A stretch of 64,000 nucleotides of DNA from Spirochaetota bacterium (GTDB taxonomy: Bacteria > Spirochaetota > Brachyspiria > Brachyspirales > JACRPF01), in the NCBI GenBank assembly GCA_016214035.1, contig JACRPF010000011.1, positions 62,001-126,000 on the forward strand. The letters run 5' to 3'. The translations under genes were made by a program, and so were the position numbers. Positions 13,797-55,058 of the stretch are shown here, one piece after another. Positions within the stretch are counted from its first letter, which is position 1. Every line of letters begins with the position of its first letter. The notes below the pieces were generated by a model, which did no database searches, had not been told where the DNA came from, and saw only the letters and a program-made list of their open reading frames with translations.

Positions 13797-15383
13797 TCAC
13801 CCTCGTCTCAACTTCTTCTTCATCGCATTCACCAGCTCAGCCAAATCCTTATTCCCGAACAGATAGTTACACACCAGATACACGCCAATAGCAATGACAA
13901 TGATGACGCAGAGTTTCCACGCAAGCGCCAGTTTTCCGATATGCGGTGTTATCAGAAGTATTTTTCCGCCAAACGCGGCACCCGCCATGACGGCCGACGC
14001 GAGTATGGTGCGCATAAGTCCGCCGCCCATGCGCACGATATGCTTTTCCTTCATCTTGCGTTTCAAGAGCGAGAGCATGAGGAGGAACATGAGCGTATTC
14101 CCCACCGCGTTGGCAAGACCGATGCCCATGATATCGAGTTTGAAGATGCGCGTCAGGAGGAAACTCAGAAGCGCGTTGAGCACGAACGATATCGCGGAGA
14201 CGATGACCGGCGTGCGCGTATCCTTGAGCGAATAGAACGACTGCACGATGATGCGGTATGACGCGATGAAAAAGAGCGCGAGCGACATGGTGATGAGCGC
14301 GCCGGACACGAGCTTCACGGACTGCATGTCGAATTTACCGAACTTGAACAGCAGGCTGACGATCTCGTCGGAGAGCACGAGTATGCCTGCGGTCGCGGGC
14401 ACCGTGACAAGGGCGATGAGTCTGAGCGAATACGAGAGCGATTCCCTGAACTGCCCTGTGTCCTTCGCGAGCGCCTCCCGGGAAAGTGTCGGGAGCATGA
14501 CGGTTGCGAGCGACACGGCAAAGATGCCGAGCGTAAGTTCGTTGAGCCGGTTGGCGAACATGAGCGCCGACGCGCGTCCGTCGCCGAGCGATGCCGCAAA
14601 ACCGTACGACACGAGCACATTGACCTGATAGATACCGACACCGATGATGCCGGGCGCGAAAAGTTTCGCGATACGTATCAGTTCGGAGTCCTTCCATTTG
14701 AAGGCGGGAAACAGCGTGTAGCCGGTCTTGAGGAAGAACGGTATCTGCATGACGAGCTGCAGAACACCGCCTGCAACGGTACCCGCGGCGAAGGCGAAGG
14801 CGAGGTTCGGAAACGCGTGCGGGAAGATGAAATGCGCGGCAAGTACGGTGCCGATGATAGCCAGGTTGAGCATGACCGGCGTGAACGCGGGTATGCTGAA
14901 ATTCCCGTGCATGTTGAGCACGCCCTGCACGACAGCCGCAAGCGAGATGCAGAATATATACGGGAACATGACGCGTGTGAGCGCCACGGTCATATCGAAT
15001 TTATCGGCCGATTGCGCCGCACCCGCATAGACTATCGACACGAGCGCGGGGGCGATGAGGATGCCGATGACGGTGACGAAGACCATGATACAGGTAAGGA
15101 GCGTAAAGAACGACGAAAGGAACTGCTGCGATTCCGCCTTGGTCCGCTGATGCTCCACGCCGGTGAACACGGGGATGAAACTCGCCGTCATGGCTCCCTC
15201 GGCGAACAGACGGCGAAGGAGATTGGGCAGGAGAAAGCCGATTGAGAACGCGTCCGACAGCATGGTGGTGCCGAGAAAATGCGCCTGCAGCTGATCACGG
15301 ATAAGTCCGAACACGCGGCTTACCGTGGTCATGACCGACATCTTCGCCGATGATGCGACAATGCTCTTTTTCTTTTGTTCCAT
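13797..15383 (-). CDS. murJ: lipid II flippase MurJ
   Basis: 528 residues, about 14 hydrophobic helices, no signal peptide. N-terminal SRVFGLIRDQL, FLLPNLLRRLFAEGA and ASFIPVF are hallmark MurJ/MviN segments; the conserved arginine-rich cavity residues (R in IRD, RR in LLRRL) are present. MurJ moves lipid II from the inner to the outer face of the cytoplasmic membrane for peptidoglycan synthesis. Length is normal for the family. The gene is alone on its transcript. The ATG lacks a Shine-Dalgarno sequence and lies only nine bases from a -10 box, suggesting translation of an almost leaderless mRNA. Confidence 0.92.
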   Translation of the reverse strand: MEQKKKSIVASSAKMSVMTTVSRVFGLIRDQLQAHFLGTTMLSDAFSIGFLLPNLLRRLFAEGAMTASFIPVFTGVEHQRTKAESQQFLSSFFTLLTCIMVFVTVIGILIAPALVSIVYAGAAQSADKFDMTVALTRVMFPYIFCISLAAVVQGVLNMHGNFSIPAFTPVMLNLAIIGTVLAAHFIFPHAFPNLAFAFAAGTVAGGVLQLVMQIPFFLKTGYTLFPAFKWKDSELIRIAKLFAPGIIGVGIYQVNVLVSYGFAASLGDGRASALMFANRLNELTLGIFAVSLATVMLPTLSREALAKDTGQFRESLSYSLRLIALVTVPATAGILVLSDEIVSLLFKFGKFDMQSVKLVSGALITMSLALFFIASYRIIVQSFYSLKDTRTPVIVSAISFVLNALLSFLLTRIFKLDIMGIGLANAVGNTLMFLLMLSLLKRKMKEKHIVRMGGGLMRTILASAVMAGAAFGGKILLITPHIGKLALAWKLCVIIVIAIGVYLVCNYLFGNKDLAELVNAMKKKLRRG

Positions 15384-15392
15384 GATGCCGCC

Positions 15393-15420
15393 ACTATATG
15401 CGTTGGGCGTTTTTTGTCAA
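15393..15420 (-). promoter_or_regulatory. murJ promoter, almost leaderless
   Basis: TTGACA (15420-15415), 16-bp spacer, TATAGT (15398-15393) on the minus strand. Only nine bases separate the -10 box from the ATG at 15383, so the mRNA should begin two or three bases before the start codon. Confidence 0.6.
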
Positions 15421-18205: not shown

Positions 18206-18234
18206 TTGAATTTTTGATAAAAAGCATTTAAACT
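18206..18234 (+). promoter_or_regulatory. probable leaderless promoter of the AraC regulator
   Basis: TTGAAT (18206-18211), 17-bp spacer, TAAACT (18229-18234), with six bases to the ATG. The -10 is weak but the geometry matches the other leaderless promoters in the window. Confidence 0.4.
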
Positions 18235-34423: not shown

Positions 34424-34451
34424 AGTATACGGTAATCAGCGAATATTTCAA
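34424..34451 (-). promoter_or_regulatory. promoter of the crtI-crtB operon
   Basis: TTGAAA (34451-34446), 16-bp spacer, TATACT (34429-34424) on the minus strand, giving a leader of about 27 bases with a ribosome-binding site. Confidence 0.6.
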
Positions 34452-34473: not shown

Positions 34474-34501
34474 TTGACAAAGCAGATGGAGCAAATATAC
34501 T
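34474..34501 (+). promoter_or_regulatory. leaderless promoter of alr
   Basis: TTGACA (34474-34479), 16-bp spacer, TATACT (34496-34501). Six bases later comes the ATG, so the mRNA should start at or within one base of the A. There is no Shine-Dalgarno sequence. Confidence 0.65.
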
Positions 34502-34507
34502 GACACC

Positions 34508-35647
34508 ATGACGAACGCGGAGCTTAAAGGCAGACGCCCCACCTGGGCCGAAAGTAATCTCAGAAATCTCGCGCACAATATCCGCGCGATACGCGCGTTC
34601 GCCGGACACAAATGCGAGTATCTGCTCCCGGTAAAAGCGGATGCGTACGGACACGGCATGATAGGCGTGGCGAAAACGGCAATCGCCGAAGGGGTGCGGT
34701 ATCTCGGCATCGCATCCACCGATGAAGGGATGACGCTTCGCAGAAACGGCATACACGCACAGCTGCTTATTCTGGGCTTGAGTTTTCCCGAACAGATACC
34801 GGCCATTCTCAAATACAATCTTATTCCGGCTGTCGCAACGCGCGAGTTCATCGACGCACTCGACCGCGCCGCGCATACGCGGGGCGTGCATGTTCCGGTG
34901 CATGTGAAGATCGACACCGGTATGGGCCGCATCGGGGTTTCCGAATCAGACGCCCTGCCGTTCGTGGAATATACGGCGCTTAAAAAAAACATCATCCTTG
35001 AAGGCGTGTTTACGCATTTCCCGGTCTCCGACGACGACGTGCCGTACTCCCGGCGACAGCTGGCCAGGTTTTCGAAAATCATCGAACGTATCGCCGCGTT
35101 CGGCATTCGCCCGAAATATATACACGCGGCGAATTCGGCGGCCGTCGTCAATCTGCCGAAAAGCATCTTCAATATGATACGCCCCGGGCTCATCAGTTAC
35201 GGGTATACGACGTTCCCGCTTCCGAAACGGCTTACGCTCAAGCCGGTCATCAGCGTCAAAAGCAGGATAATCTTCGTGAAGAAAATAGACAAGGGCATGT
35301 CGGTAAGTTATGGACGGACCTATATCGCGAAGCGCAGCACCGTTGTCGCAACGGTTCCCATCGGTTATGAGGACGGGCTCAACCGCCGTTTCTCGAATAA
35401 TCTGTCGATGCTGGTTCGCGGTGTCCGTGTGCCGCTGATCGGACGCGTGACGATGGACCAGTGCATGCTTGATGTGACACGCCTTGACCATCAGCGTCCG
35501 GTTGTTCCGGGTGAGGAAGTTGTCATCATCGGGAAACAGGGCGGCGATGAAATAACGGTCGAAGAGCTCGCGGCGCGTATCGGCACCATCCCCTACGAGA
35601 TACCCTGCATGCTGAGCGAACGCGTGCCGCTGATCTATAAGAACTGA
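34508..35647 (+). CDS. alr: alanine racemase
   Basis: 379 residues. VKADAYGHG contains the PLP-binding lysine near residue 43, VKIDTGMGRIGV the conserved core, and SVSYGRTY the catalytic tyrosine of the second monomer. It interconverts L- and D-alanine for peptidoglycan. The C-terminal part (IGRVTMDQCMLDV) is complete. The unusual feature is the start: a near-consensus promoter ends six bases before ATG. The next gene begins 12 bases after the stop. Confidence 0.95.
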   Translation: MTNAELKGRRPTWAESNLRNLAHNIRAIRAFAGHKCEYLLPVKADAYGHGMIGVAKTAIAEGVRYLGIASTDEGMTLRRNGIHAQLLILGLSFPEQIPAILKYNLIPAVATREFIDALDRAAHTRGVHVPVHVKIDTGMGRIGVSESDALPFVEYTALKKNIILEGVFTHFPVSDDDVPYSRRQLARFSKIIERIAAFGIRPKYIHAANSAAVVNLPKSIFNMIRPGLISYGYTTFPLPKRLTLKPVISVKSRIIFVKKIDKGMSVSYGRTYIAKRSTVVATVPIGYEDGLNRRFSNNLSMLVRGVRVPLIGRVTMDQCMLDVTRLDHQRPVVPGEEVVIIGKQGGDEITVEELAARIGTIPYEIPCMLSERVPLIYKN

Positions 35648-49051: not shown

Positions 49052-49079
49052 TTGACAGTACGTCATATTCATGTACAAT
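49052..49079 (+). promoter_or_regulatory. leaderless promoter of the second AraC regulator
   Basis: TTGACA (49052-49057), 16-bp spacer, TACAAT (49074-49079), six bases before ATG 49086. An upstream in-frame ATG at 49071 lies inside the promoter and is therefore unlikely to be used. Confidence 0.6.
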
Positions 49080-49085
49080 CGCGGT

Positions 49086-49955
49086 ATGCGTTTCAGCGTA
49101 AGCCCGAGCCAGTTTTTCCGCGCAAGCCCCGCGGCGCTGCGGATAACGCCGTCGCTGGTGCTTTTCGCCCGCACACAGACGCGCGCGGCATACACATTTC
49201 CGGTGCATCGTCATACCACCTATGAATTTCTTTATGTCACCAAAGGCATCTATCGCTGTCTCCTCAACGACCGCACGGTGAGCGCGGGGCCGGATACCGT
49301 TGTCGCGGTAAAGCCCGGCGATATGCACGAGGACCGCTGCGGGCAAGGCGTCTGTTTTTACACGGTCAATCTCATGATCACCCGTTCACTCGCCGGCAAT
49401 GAGCCGTTCACCGGGGTGTTCACGAAAGGCATACCGCCGGCGTCGCAGGCCGTGTCCCTCCCGCGCGCGGTGTTCCGTCCGCTGGTAACCGCCATGTATG
49501 AAGAATCGAAGCGCAACGATGCGGTATCCATGCGCATTGTGGAGGACAGGGCCGCCGAATTCTTCTGGCAGTTCGTACGCTATTGTCCTGACGCGCGGCT
49601 TTCCGACGACATGCGCGCCGCTCCTGCCGATGACGATTTCAAGCAGCGTCTCGCCGCGATATTCGCGCGCGACCCGTCACACCGGCTGAGCGTCGGCCGC
49701 ATGGCCGAGGCGATGAACATGAGCGAAAGCGGCTTCGCGCACCGCTGCGCCGCGGCCATCGGCGTGTCACCGGCAAAGGCGTTCGTGACGTACCGGCTGG
49801 AACGGGCGCTGTCGATGCTCCTTGAAACGAGAAAACCCGTGCGCGAGGTTGCCGCCGAAACGGGATTCAATAATCAATTCCATTTTTCACGGCTCTTCTC
49901 CCGTGTATACGGCAAATCGCCCCGCGCATACCGGCGCTGGATACAGCAACGCTGA
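49086..49955 (+). CDS. AraC-family transcriptional regulator
   Basis: 289 residues from ATG 49086. The N-terminal cupin domain (FPVHRHTTYEFLYVTKG, VKPGDMHED) would bind an inducer. The C-terminal part has two helix-turn-helix motifs (LSVGRMAEAMNMSESGF and VREVAAETGFNNQFHFSRLF). Divergent from the FAD oxidoreductase / GH-A operon, so it probably controls it, and possibly the GDSL hydrolase gene 23 bases downstream, which is on the same transcript. Confidence 0.85.
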   Translation: MRFSVSPSQFFRASPAALRITPSLVLFARTQTRAAYTFPVHRHTTYEFLYVTKGIYRCLLNDRTVSAGPDTVVAVKPGDMHEDRCGQGVCFYTVNLMITRSLAGNEPFTGVFTKGIPPASQAVSLPRAVFRPLVTAMYEESKRNDAVSMRIVEDRAAEFFWQFVRYCPDARLSDDMRAAPADDDFKQRLAAIFARDPSHRLSVGRMAEAMNMSESGFAHRCAAAIGVSPAKAFVTYRLERALSMLLETRKPVREVAAETGFNNQFHFSRLFSRVYGKSPRAYRRWIQQR

Positions 49956-52634: not shown

Positions 52635-52992
52635 CGTCGTTACCGTCAACGCCGTCTTTCCCGGTCGAGTGGAGTTTATAATCGGTCCCGTTCGCCGTAC
52701 ATTGATATACATACGGCCTGTTGTAGCTGTCCATAACGCCGCCCGCGGGCAGAAGTTTTTCGGCGACAAGCTCTTCGAGGCGCGCGGGATATTTCTGTTT
52801 CTCGCCGCGGTACATCTCAAGCGCCGCCGTTATCGACGCAAGTTCCATCTGCGTTGTCACCTTCTGCGCATAACCGAGCGCCGCGACGAACGACGGGATG
52901 GCGACCGCAAGCACGAGTCCGATGATGCCGAGCACGACGAGCACTTCCATAAGCGAATAGCCGCGCTGTTTTCCAGAATGTTTTTTTTTCAC
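52612..52992 (-). CDS. gspG: major pseudopilin, GspG-like
   Basis: 126 residues. QRGYSLMEVLVVLGIIGLVL is the prepilin leader with Glu+5. The head has the GspG features: LEMYRGEKQKYPARLEEL, then NRPYVYQCT and the calcium-site-like end KDGVDGNDDDI. It would polymerise into the type II secretion pseudopilus. It overlaps the upstream barrel gene by four bases. No GspD, GspE, GspF or peptidase genes are in the window. Confidence 0.82.
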   Translation of the reverse strand: MKKKHSGKQRGYSLMEVLVVLGIIGLVLAVAIPSFVAALGYAQKVTTQMELASITAALEMYRGEKQKYPARLEELVAEKLLPAGGVMDSYNRPYVYQCTANGTDYKLHSTGKDGVDGNDDDIAAAR

Positions 52993-53978
52993 AGCATTAT
53001 CCTGTAGGTCAGCATATACACCGCACCCTTGTCTGGCATGAATGAAAGGTCGCGCAGATTCATCTCCGCCGATATCGCAGCCGTATGCATGCCGATGGAA
53101 TTCGCAAGTCCGAATGATACCGTATCATATCCGTCGGTAAACGAATGCGTTATCCCTGCCGATAGCGTGAAGCGCAGCGGCAGTTTCACGGAGACACCGC
53201 CGGCTATGCGGTTGGCCGCGGTGTCGGTGATGTGCCGTTTCCATGAGACGAACGCGGTGAACGGTTCGGCTACGAGGCCGGCATCGAGCCGGAACGAGAA
53301 CGGCATGGTGATGTCGGGGATGCGTTCAAACCACATATACGAAAGCAGCGGTATATTGTCAAAAAAGACAGCCAGATGCAGCGGTGCGAATTGATCGAAT
53401 ACCATGCCGTAGCCCACGCTCGTGCCGATGGGATTCTCGAACTGCGATGATATCTGCGTCCCGTTGGTAAGGACTTCATTATAATAGAGTGTTCCTGAAT
53501 ACAGCCGGACCACGAGCCCGCCGCGGAGTTTCAGCGCACCCTCTTTGACGCCGTAGGCGCATGAATACTCGTTCAGTGAATACGCGTATGAATAAACCCT
53601 GTCGCCTTCCGTCACGGCGTTTATCCTGCCGTTGGCGAGTGTCCGCCAGAGAAAACTGCCGCCCCGGGCGCCGATGCCGAACGATGACACCGTATAGCCG
53701 AAGACATCACCCCGCTGATTCGTCAAATCGCGCGTTGTCGATGGCGCGAGCATCGCAAAGCGCCCCGACAATTCGGCATATTCGTTCGTAAGGAAAGACA
53801 GATATCCCGGATTATGCATAACCGCGGCGGCAGGATTATCACCGGCCACATGTCCGCCGAATGCGGCGCTGTCGGCATTCACCGTATCGTAGATGAGCGT
53901 ATGTTCTATGGAGAAAAACGGCACACCCGACAGCAGTGCCGCATACATGAGTATGATGCAGACTCGTATCACTTTCAT
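52989..53978 (-). CDS. outer-membrane beta-barrel protein, PorV/FadL-like
   Basis: 329 residues. Signal peptide (VCIILMYAALLSGVP), then NADSAAFGGHVAGDNPAAAVMHNPGYLS (shown in part), the N-terminal Asn-Pro-Ala pattern of PorV/UPF0164-type barrels, and alternating strands to the C-terminal YMLTYRIML. It could be the outer-membrane partner or a substrate of the pseudopilus encoded downstream. The promoter's -10 is only seven bases from the ATG, so its message is predicted to be leaderless. Confidence 0.75.
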   Translation of the reverse strand: MKVIRVCIILMYAALLSGVPFFSIEHTLIYDTVNADSAAFGGHVAGDNPAAAVMHNPGYLSFLTNEYAELSGRFAMLAPSTTRDLTNQRGDVFGYTVSSFGIGARGGSFLWRTLANGRINAVTEGDRVYSYAYSLNEYSCAYGVKEGALKLRGGLVVRLYSGTLYYNEVLTNGTQISSQFENPIGTSVGYGMVFDQFAPLHLAVFFDNIPLLSYMWFERIPDITMPFSFRLDAGLVAEPFTAFVSWKRHITDTAANRIAGGVSVKLPLRFTLSAGITHSFTDGYDTVSFGLANSIGMHTAAISAEMNLRDLSFMPDKGAVYMLTYRIML

Positions 53979-53985
53979 GCGGGAA

Positions 53986-54013
53986 AGTATATCGCCGTTT
54001 TTGCATTTTACAA
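53986..54013 (-). promoter_or_regulatory. leaderless promoter of the barrel-pseudopilin operon
   Basis: TTGTAA (54013-54008), 16-bp spacer, TATACT (53991-53986) on the minus strand; seven bases to the ATG at 53978. Confidence 0.55.
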
Positions 54014-54070: not shown

Positions 54071-54098
54071 TTGATTTTACACCTTGATGCACTATAAT
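54071..54098 (+). promoter_or_regulatory. leaderless promoter of the ATPase operon
   Basis: TTGATT (54071-54076), 16-bp spacer, TATAAT (54093-54098), six bases before ATG 54105. An earlier in-frame ATG at 54084 lies inside the promoter. Confidence 0.6.
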
Positions 54099-54104
54099 AT
54101 CCGC

Positions 54105-55058
54105 ATGAACGATATCCTCCGCACCGAAGGCCTTTCAAAGCAGTTCAACTCGCGCACCAATCCGCTGTACGGAAAAACGTTTACCGTCAACGCGCTTTCC
54201 GATGTGTCCGTAACTGTTGCGAAAGGGGAGACGCTCGGCGTCGTGGGTGAATCCGGTTCGGGCAAGTCGACGCTCGCGCGGCTTATGATCGGGCTTATTA
54301 CGCCGACGGCGGGCAGGATCTATTATAAAGATACCACGGTTGACGCCATGCTTGCCGATCATTCCCGCGCCTACCGGAAAGCGGTGCAGATGGTCTTTCA
54401 GGATCCCGCGGCTACGCTCAATCCACGCTTCACGATAGTGAATCTTCTCAAAGAACCGCTCGCGATACATAACATCGCTCCGGAAAAAGAGCGGCGTGAC
54501 CATGCGGCGCGTGTTCTTGCCCGTGTCGATATCGGAGCTGAGGCGCTCGACCGCTATCCGCACGAGTTCTCCGGCGGACAGCGTCAGCGTATCGGTATCG
54601 CCCGGGCGCTTTCCGTCGAGCCCGAGGTCATCATCCTCGACGAGCCCGTCTCCGCACTTGATATATCGATACAGACGCAGATACTCAATCTGCTGCTCCG
54701 TCTCAAGGACGACGATAATCTCACCTATGTGTTCATCTCACACGACCTGTCCGTCATCCGTTTCGTGAGCGACCGCGTGCTCGTGCTCTATCTCGGCAAA
54801 GTGATGGAATACGGCACCACGGCCGATATTTTCTCCGATCCGCGGCACCCCTACACGAAACTCCTGCTCGCATCGACCTATTCGATAAACGGTTCACGCG
54901 CGGTAGACATCGCCGACGATATCTCGATAGCGAGGAACACCACCGGCTGCGTGTTCTATCCGCGCTGTCCGAGACGCGTTCCTGAATGTCTTCATGATAT
55001 TCCGCGTGTGGATGTCTCCTCCACACACGCATCCTGGTGCACGCAGACGAACGCATGA
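54105..55058 (+). CDS. oligopeptide/dipeptide ABC transporter ATPase, OppF-like
   Basis: 317 residues from ATG 54105. Walker A GESGSGKST, Q-loop FQDPAATLNPR, signature FSGGQRQRIGIARAL, Walker B VIILDEPVSALD and switch FISHDL are all present. The C-terminal CVFYPRCPRRVPEC is the oligopeptide-ATPase extension with its four Cys. It energises peptide (or nickel or sugar) import, but no permease or binding protein is adjacent; it may serve permeases elsewhere. It overlaps the next gene by four bases. Confidence 0.88.
   Translation: MNDILRTEGLSKQFNSRTNPLYGKTFTVNALSDVSVTVAKGETLGVVGESGSGKSTLARLMIGLITPTAGRIYYKDTTVDAMLADHSRAYRKAVQMVFQDPAATLNPRFTIVNLLKEPLAIHNIAPEKERRDHAARVLARVDIGAEALDRYPHEFSGGQRQRIGIARALSVEPEVIILDEPVSALDISIQTQILNLLLRLKDDDNLTYVFISHDLSVIRFVSDRVLVLYLGKVMEYGTTADIFSDPRHPYTKLLLASTYSINGSRAVDIADDISIARNTTGCVFYPRCPRRVPECLHDIPRVDVSSTHASWCTQTNA

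What the first reader, a model, noticed from the sequence alone, without database searches (positions are those of the whole stretch)
34474..34510. Leaderless promoter at alr, part of a recurring pattern
TTGACA-16-TATACT ends six bases before the ATG of alr, so transcription should begin at the start codon. The same geometry occurs at the AraC genes (18241, 49086), the ATPase gene (54105), the barrel gene (53978) and, with nine bases, murJ (15383). All lack a Shine-Dalgarno sequence, while most other genes here have good ones. Two separate classes of translation start are suggested. Leaderless mRNAs are known in some bacterial groups but are not widely described in spirochaetes.
Basis: partly seen in the sequence, partly recalled or inferred. 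Interest (0 to 1): 0.6.

Follow-up and report, generated by a model that had tools for sequence, protein, structure and literature searches.

The report
Leaderless gene starts, concentrated in regulators
In this Brachyspira-related spirochaete roughly one gene in twelve has its promoter placed so that the mRNA should begin right at the start codon, with no ribosome-binding leader, and about two fifths of its AraC-type regulator genes (27 of 51 and 11 of 41 in two samples) are built this way.

Summary
TTGACA-16-TATACT-6-ATG is at alr exactly as stated, and the geometry recurs at five other window genes (barrel gene d=7, murJ d=9; AraC-18241 and AraC-49086 weaker). It is not chance. Whole genome: 11 exact matches against 0 for the reversed pattern. 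In a 1.26-Mb sample, promoters found without any start model pile up 6-7 nt before the ATG of first genes (d5-8: 47 against 8.7 expected); within operons there is no peak. A free-spacing mixture model learns the -10 box, the distance of 6 nt, and about 8% of genes in this class, all starting with ATG. Its -35 boxes, not used by the model, fall at spacers 16-17. E. coli gives 0 of 191. In the same-family genome G139 the arrangement is kept at alr, murJ and the ABC-ATPase gene; most Brachyspira relatives carry leaders. So: a real leaderless class beside a normal SD class. New here is its concentration in AraC-family regulators: 27/51 against 45/843 others; G139 23/40 against 40/494; held-out, weaker, 11/41 against 7/76. 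Leaderless mRNAs are already known in spirochaetes (Leptospira dRNA-seq; in-silico survey), so the kind is known. No transcript was measured.

The parts
34474..34510 (+). alr: -35 TTGACA 34474-34479, -10 TATACT 34496-34501, ATG 34508-34510
   Evidence: posterior 1.0 for -10 at d=6; ortholog in G139 has TTGACA-16-TATACT-8-ATG
34508..35647 (+). alr, alanine racemase (379 aa)
   Evidence: Pfam PF01168 and PF00842
18206..18243 (+). AraC gene 1: TTGAAT 18206-18211, TAAACT 18229-18234, ATG 18241
   Evidence: posterior 0.75; HTH_18
49052..49088 (+). AraC gene 2: TTGACA 49052-49057, TACAAT 49074-49079, ATG 49086; alternative ATG 49071
   Evidence: start ambiguous, 0.20 against 0.68 for 49071
54071..54107 (+). 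Oligopeptide ABC-transporter ATPase gene: TTGATT 54071-54076, TATAAT 54093-54098, ATG 54105
   Evidence: posterior 0.99; G139 ortholog TTGCAT-17-TATAAT-7-ATG with N-termini aligned from residue 3
53976..54013 (-). Barrel gene (no Pfam): TTGTAA 54013-54008, TATACT 53991-53986, ATG 53978
   Evidence: posterior 0.89 at d=7; no homologue found in G139 or G112
15381..15420 (-). murJ: TTGACA 15420-15415, TATAGT 15398-15393, ATG 15383 (d=9)
   Evidence: 0.55; G139 ortholog TTGACA-17-TATAGT-7-ATG, N-termini aligned from residue 1

Best explanation
The genome has two kinds of gene start. Most genes have an SD sequence 4-7 nt before the start codon. A minority, about 5-8% of all genes (17-23% of divergently transcribed first genes in this family), has a housekeeping sigma-70 promoter whose -10 box ends 6-7 nt before an ATG. 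The polymerase should then start at or within 1-2 nt of the A of the ATG, giving a leaderless mRNA read by direct binding of 70S ribosomes to the 5'-terminal AUG. The class is family-wide and strongly over-represented among AraC-family regulators, usually divergent from an SD-led gene across a gap of about 130 bp. Shown: geometry, statistics, conservation, AraC enrichment, intact anti-SD. Inferred: transcription start site, 70S initiation, and any purpose (my guess: low, SD-independent synthesis of scarce regulators from compact divergent promoters).
For: Exact pattern 11 against 0 control. EM with free spacing 0-34: -10 consensus TATACT, peak d=6; decoy starting motifs re-find the same box in a shifted register; E. 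coli 0/191 at d5-8. Model-free histogram: divergent genes d=6:17, d=7:14, neighbours 0-2; first genes d5-8 47 against 8.7, operon-internal 5 against 4. Independent -35: 23/18/5 of 72 match TTGACA at 4 or more of 6 at spacers 16/17/18, 0-1 at spacers 13-15, 19 and 20. Start codon ATG in 72 of 72. Conservation in G139 at alr, murJ and the ABC ATPase, with N-termini aligning from the first residues for the last two. AraC: 27/51 against 45/843 (p 1e-18), G139 23/40 against 40/494 (p 2e-13), divergent genes only OR about 12.6-12.9; Pfam HTH_18 in 23/59 against 3/60 SD controls; held-out 11/41 against 7/76, p 0.016. 16S tail ends in an intact anti-SD, CCTCC.
Against: No RNA data. Gene and start calls come from my own simple caller. 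The held-out AraC rate (27%) is half the discovery rate (53%). Leaderless state turns over: several other G000-G139 ortholog pairs differ. AraC-49086 and murJ are individually uncertain. The -10 box at d=6 physically displaces an SD, so 'no SD' is not independent evidence.
Confidence: 0.87

Rival explanations
1. Promoters lie close to the ATG but transcripts carry very short leaders (1-5 nt) or start at several positions; initiation is SD-independent but not strictly leaderless.
For: Distances of 7-9 nt occur (murJ 9, barrel 7, alr in G139 8); initiation can wobble by 1-3 nt (general knowledge).
Against: The sharp mode is at 6-7 and distances 8-15 are nearly empty, as expected if starting at the A is selected.
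Confidence: 0.1
2. True start codons lie downstream with SD sequences; the ATG next to the -10 box is incidental.
For: Some genes have alternative starts (AraC 49071/49086).
Against: All in-frame starts within 12 log units of coding score compete in the model; murJ and ABC-ATPase orthologs align from residue 1-3; an excess of ATG at exactly d=6-7 is not expected of incidental ATGs.
Confidence: 0.03
3. Chance: promoter-like hexamers near ATGs.
For: In a 4-kb stretch around alr the promoter scan finds no more sites than shuffles do.
Against: 11 against 0, 47 against 8.7, E. coli 0/191, conservation in G139.
Confidence: 0.01

Closest known systems
TA-led (leaderless) genes of bacteria, Zheng et al. 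2011, PMC3160421
   Same: TANNNT -10 box about 12 bp before the start codon, separate from SD-led genes; 6 of 18 Spirochaetes genomes listed (average 3.9%); COG K (transcription) over-represented in general.
   Different: A Brachyspira-order family outside Brachyspira; about 8% of genes; about half of AraC genes in the discovery samples.
Leaderless mRNAs of Leptospira interrogans (dRNA-seq), PMC5243855
   Same: Spirochaete; 430-450 genes with a primary TSS within 10 nt of the start codon, 170-184 exactly at it.
   Different: Measured there, inferred here; no clear -10/-35 consensus found in Leptospira; no AraC link reported in the passages read.
Leaderless mRNAs of Mycobacterium tuberculosis and Deinococcus deserti
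   Same: Mixed SD and leaderless start classes (PMC9031893).
   Different: Leaderless share there is above 20% and up to 60%; here about 5-8%, ATG only.
VirF21 of Shigella, a short form of the VirF regulator from an internal promoter (PMC9031893)
   Same: A leaderless mRNA for a regulator; VirF belonging to the AraC family is from general knowledge.
   Different: A single truncated product, not a genome-wide class.

Membership tests
Bacterial leaderless genes | -10 box at a fixed short distance (about 6 nt) from the start codon | tested here: met
   Free-spacing EM peak at d=6; model-free histogram
Bacterial leaderless genes | -35 element at proper spacing, i.e. real promoters | tested here: met
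   Spacers 16-17, independent of the model
Bacterial leaderless genes | No SD sequence | tested here: met
   Sequence upstream of alr and of class members; weak SD-like alternative only at murJ
Bacterial leaderless genes | First genes of transcription units, not operon-internal | tested here: met
   16.8% of divergent against 2.8% of close same-strand genes; G139 23% against 3.5%
Bacterial leaderless genes | AUG start preference | tested here: met
   72/72 ATG against 26 GTG and 1 TTG among 669 SD genes; EM allows a few non-ATG in G139
Bacterial leaderless genes | mRNA 5' end at the start codon | not testable with these tools
   No RNA data; needs 5'-end mapping
Bacterial leaderless genes | Translation by 70S initiation at the 5'-terminal AUG | not testable with these tools
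   Needs ribosome profiling or in vitro translation
Order of Brachyspira (placement of the window) | Same order as a genome matching B. murdochii | tested here: met
   G112 is one contig of 3,241,804 bp, GC 0.277, same as B. murdochii 56-150T, and is labelled same order, different family

The most novel reading that the evidence does not exclude
Leaderless initiation is used as a shared translational channel for AraC-type regulators: a large AraC repertoire (at least 150 genes) whose synthesis is set together by the state of the ribosome or initiation factors, while the divergent neighbour genes use SD initiation.
Probability: 0.12. Interest if true: 0.75.

Novelty: new member of a known kind. 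Interest (0 to 1): 0.5.

Why it matters
It gives a sequence-level case that leaderless genes are a stable class in a spirochaete lineage where nobody appears to have described them (no paper on leaderless mRNAs in Brachyspira was found in the open-access library), and it ties the class to one regulator family. That makes a testable question: why should a gene family prefer one mode of translation initiation? It also matters for annotation, since SD-based start callers may misplace starts at these genes.

Tried and rejected
Alr as a taxonomic guide: best named hits were Omnitrophota and others at 40-47%; placement taken instead from kinship with B. murdochii. The automatic ortholog concordance had low power and one wrong start in G139, replaced by directed comparison. 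Brachyspira as a carrier of the same abundant class: pattern counts show an excess at d=6/7 over 12/13, but the gene-based test in B. murdochii shows none (1 against 4.7), so at most a low-frequency class. LacI-type regulators: mostly SD or leadered, at most 3 weak leaderless calls among those resolved, so the bias is not a property of all regulators. The barrel gene could not be tested for conservation. Literature searches for leaderless mRNAs with Brachyspira, Treponema or AraC enrichment found nothing direct.

Full report
WHAT WAS CLAIMED. A sigma-70 type promoter ends six bases before the ATG of alr, the same geometry recurs at five more genes of the window, and this suggests leaderless mRNAs beside normal SD-led genes in a spirochaete.

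THE SITES. alr is exactly as described. The ABC ATPase gene (54105) and the barrel gene (53978, distance 7 rather than 6) are strong (posterior 0.99 and 0.89). AraC-18241 uses TAAACT and is fair (0.75). AraC-49086 depends on choosing 49086 over an in-frame ATG at 49071 and is uncertain (0.20 against 0.68). In the local 4-kb scan the promoter count equals the shuffled expectation, so single sites prove nothing and the genome-wide test decides.

GENOME-WIDE TEST. The window lies in a 5.21-Mb genome of 22 contigs. The exact 37-base pattern of alr (15 fixed bases) occurs 11 times, the reversed pattern never. I sampled 1.26 Mb, called about 890 genes with a codon-usage caller, and fitted a mixture of SD, -10 and no signal in which start codon and motif distance were free. 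It learned SD AGGAG at 4-7 nt (71% of genes) and TATACT (21%) with a sharp peak at 6 nt plus a broad tail of ordinary upstream promoters. The class with the box 5-8 nt from the start has 72 of 894 genes: 16.8% of divergent genes but 2.8% of genes close behind a same-strand neighbour. Decoy starting motifs converged on the same box in a shifted register, and E. coli K-12 gave 0 of 191. Without any motif model, full promoters (-35 and -10) upstream of divergent genes fall at d=6 (17) and d=7 (14), with 0-2 at d=0-5 and 8-13, then a broad hump from about 25; for first genes d5-8 has 47 against 8.7 from d10-15, for operon-internal genes 5 against 4. The -35 boxes, which the model never saw, match TTGACA at spacers 16 and 17. 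All 72 starts are ATG.

CONSERVATION. In G139, same family but another genus, alr has TTGACA-16-TATACT-8-ATG, murJ TTGACA-17-TATAGT-7-ATG and the ABC ATPase TTGCAT-17-TATAAT-7-ATG, at 63-68% protein identity with the intervening DNA diverged. murJ and ABC-ATPase proteins align from the first residues, which supports the start codons. In B. murdochii the murJ gene has an SD-like AGAGGAAA leader and the related ABC-ATPase genes lack the geometry; most Brachyspira alr genes have a leader, many with AGGAG or AGTAGG. The state also turns over in other pairs.

WHICH GENES. Of 59 proteins of the class, 23 carry the AraC HTH_18 domain against 3 of 60 SD-led divergent controls. With a local AraC profile, 27 of 51 AraC genes are in the class against 45 of 843 others (p 1e-18); in G139 23 of 40 against 40 of 494 (p 2e-13); within divergent genes alone the odds ratio is about 12.6-12.9. 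On 40 fresh stretches chosen around other AraC genes, with frozen parameters, the effect is weaker: 11 of 41 against 7 of 76 (p 0.016). I take the true AraC share as roughly 30-55%. LacI-type regulators do not share it clearly. Partners across the divergent gap (median 127 bp) are SD-led in 20 of 21 cases in G000 and 14 of 17 in G139.

MECHANISM. The 16S tail has an intact anti-SD, so SD initiation is normal and leaderless initiation is an addition. A -10 box ending 6 nt before the A places the usual start of transcription on the A. Leaderless mRNAs are read mainly by 70S ribosomes at a 5'-terminal AUG (PMC9031893), which fits the ATG-only class. Transcription start and 70S reading are inferred, not shown.

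DISTRIBUTION AND LITERATURE. The order contains Brachyspira (G112 matches B. murdochii in length and GC). Elsewhere in the phylum some genomes show the same spacing excess (G130 41 against 5; genus g23 10-17 against 1-2), most do not. Leaderless mRNAs are known in Leptospira by dRNA-seq and predicted in 6 of 18 Spirochaetes genomes, and transcription genes were noted as over-represented in general. So the kind is known; the lineage and the strength of the AraC link are new as far as the searched library shows.

Noticed in passing
G000 whole genome: Very large AraC-family repertoire: at least 150 HTH_18 genes in 5.2 Mb (all 150 scored candidates matched; 225 candidates in the first look).
   Followed up: partly
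G130, and G019/G031/G118/G157/G165: Other spirochaete lineages outside the order also show a strong excess of consensus promoters 6-7 nt before ATG over 12-13 nt (G130 41 against 5; genus g23 10-17 against 1-2).
   Followed up: partly
window 34424-34451 (-) and 34474-34501 (+): Back-to-back promoters: TTGAAA-16-TATACT for the amine-oxidoreductase gene (start 34391, leadered) and the leaderless-type alr promoter, 22 nt apart.
   Followed up: no
G112 (B. murdochii) and other Brachyspira genomes: Pattern counts show an excess at d=6/7 over d=12/13, yet the gene-start test in a 400-kb sample finds no leaderless peak; unexplained, perhaps a rare class or short unannotated genes.
   Followed up: partly
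window 52989-53978 (-): The barrel gene has no Pfam match and no homologue found in G139 or B. murdochii.
   Followed up: partly
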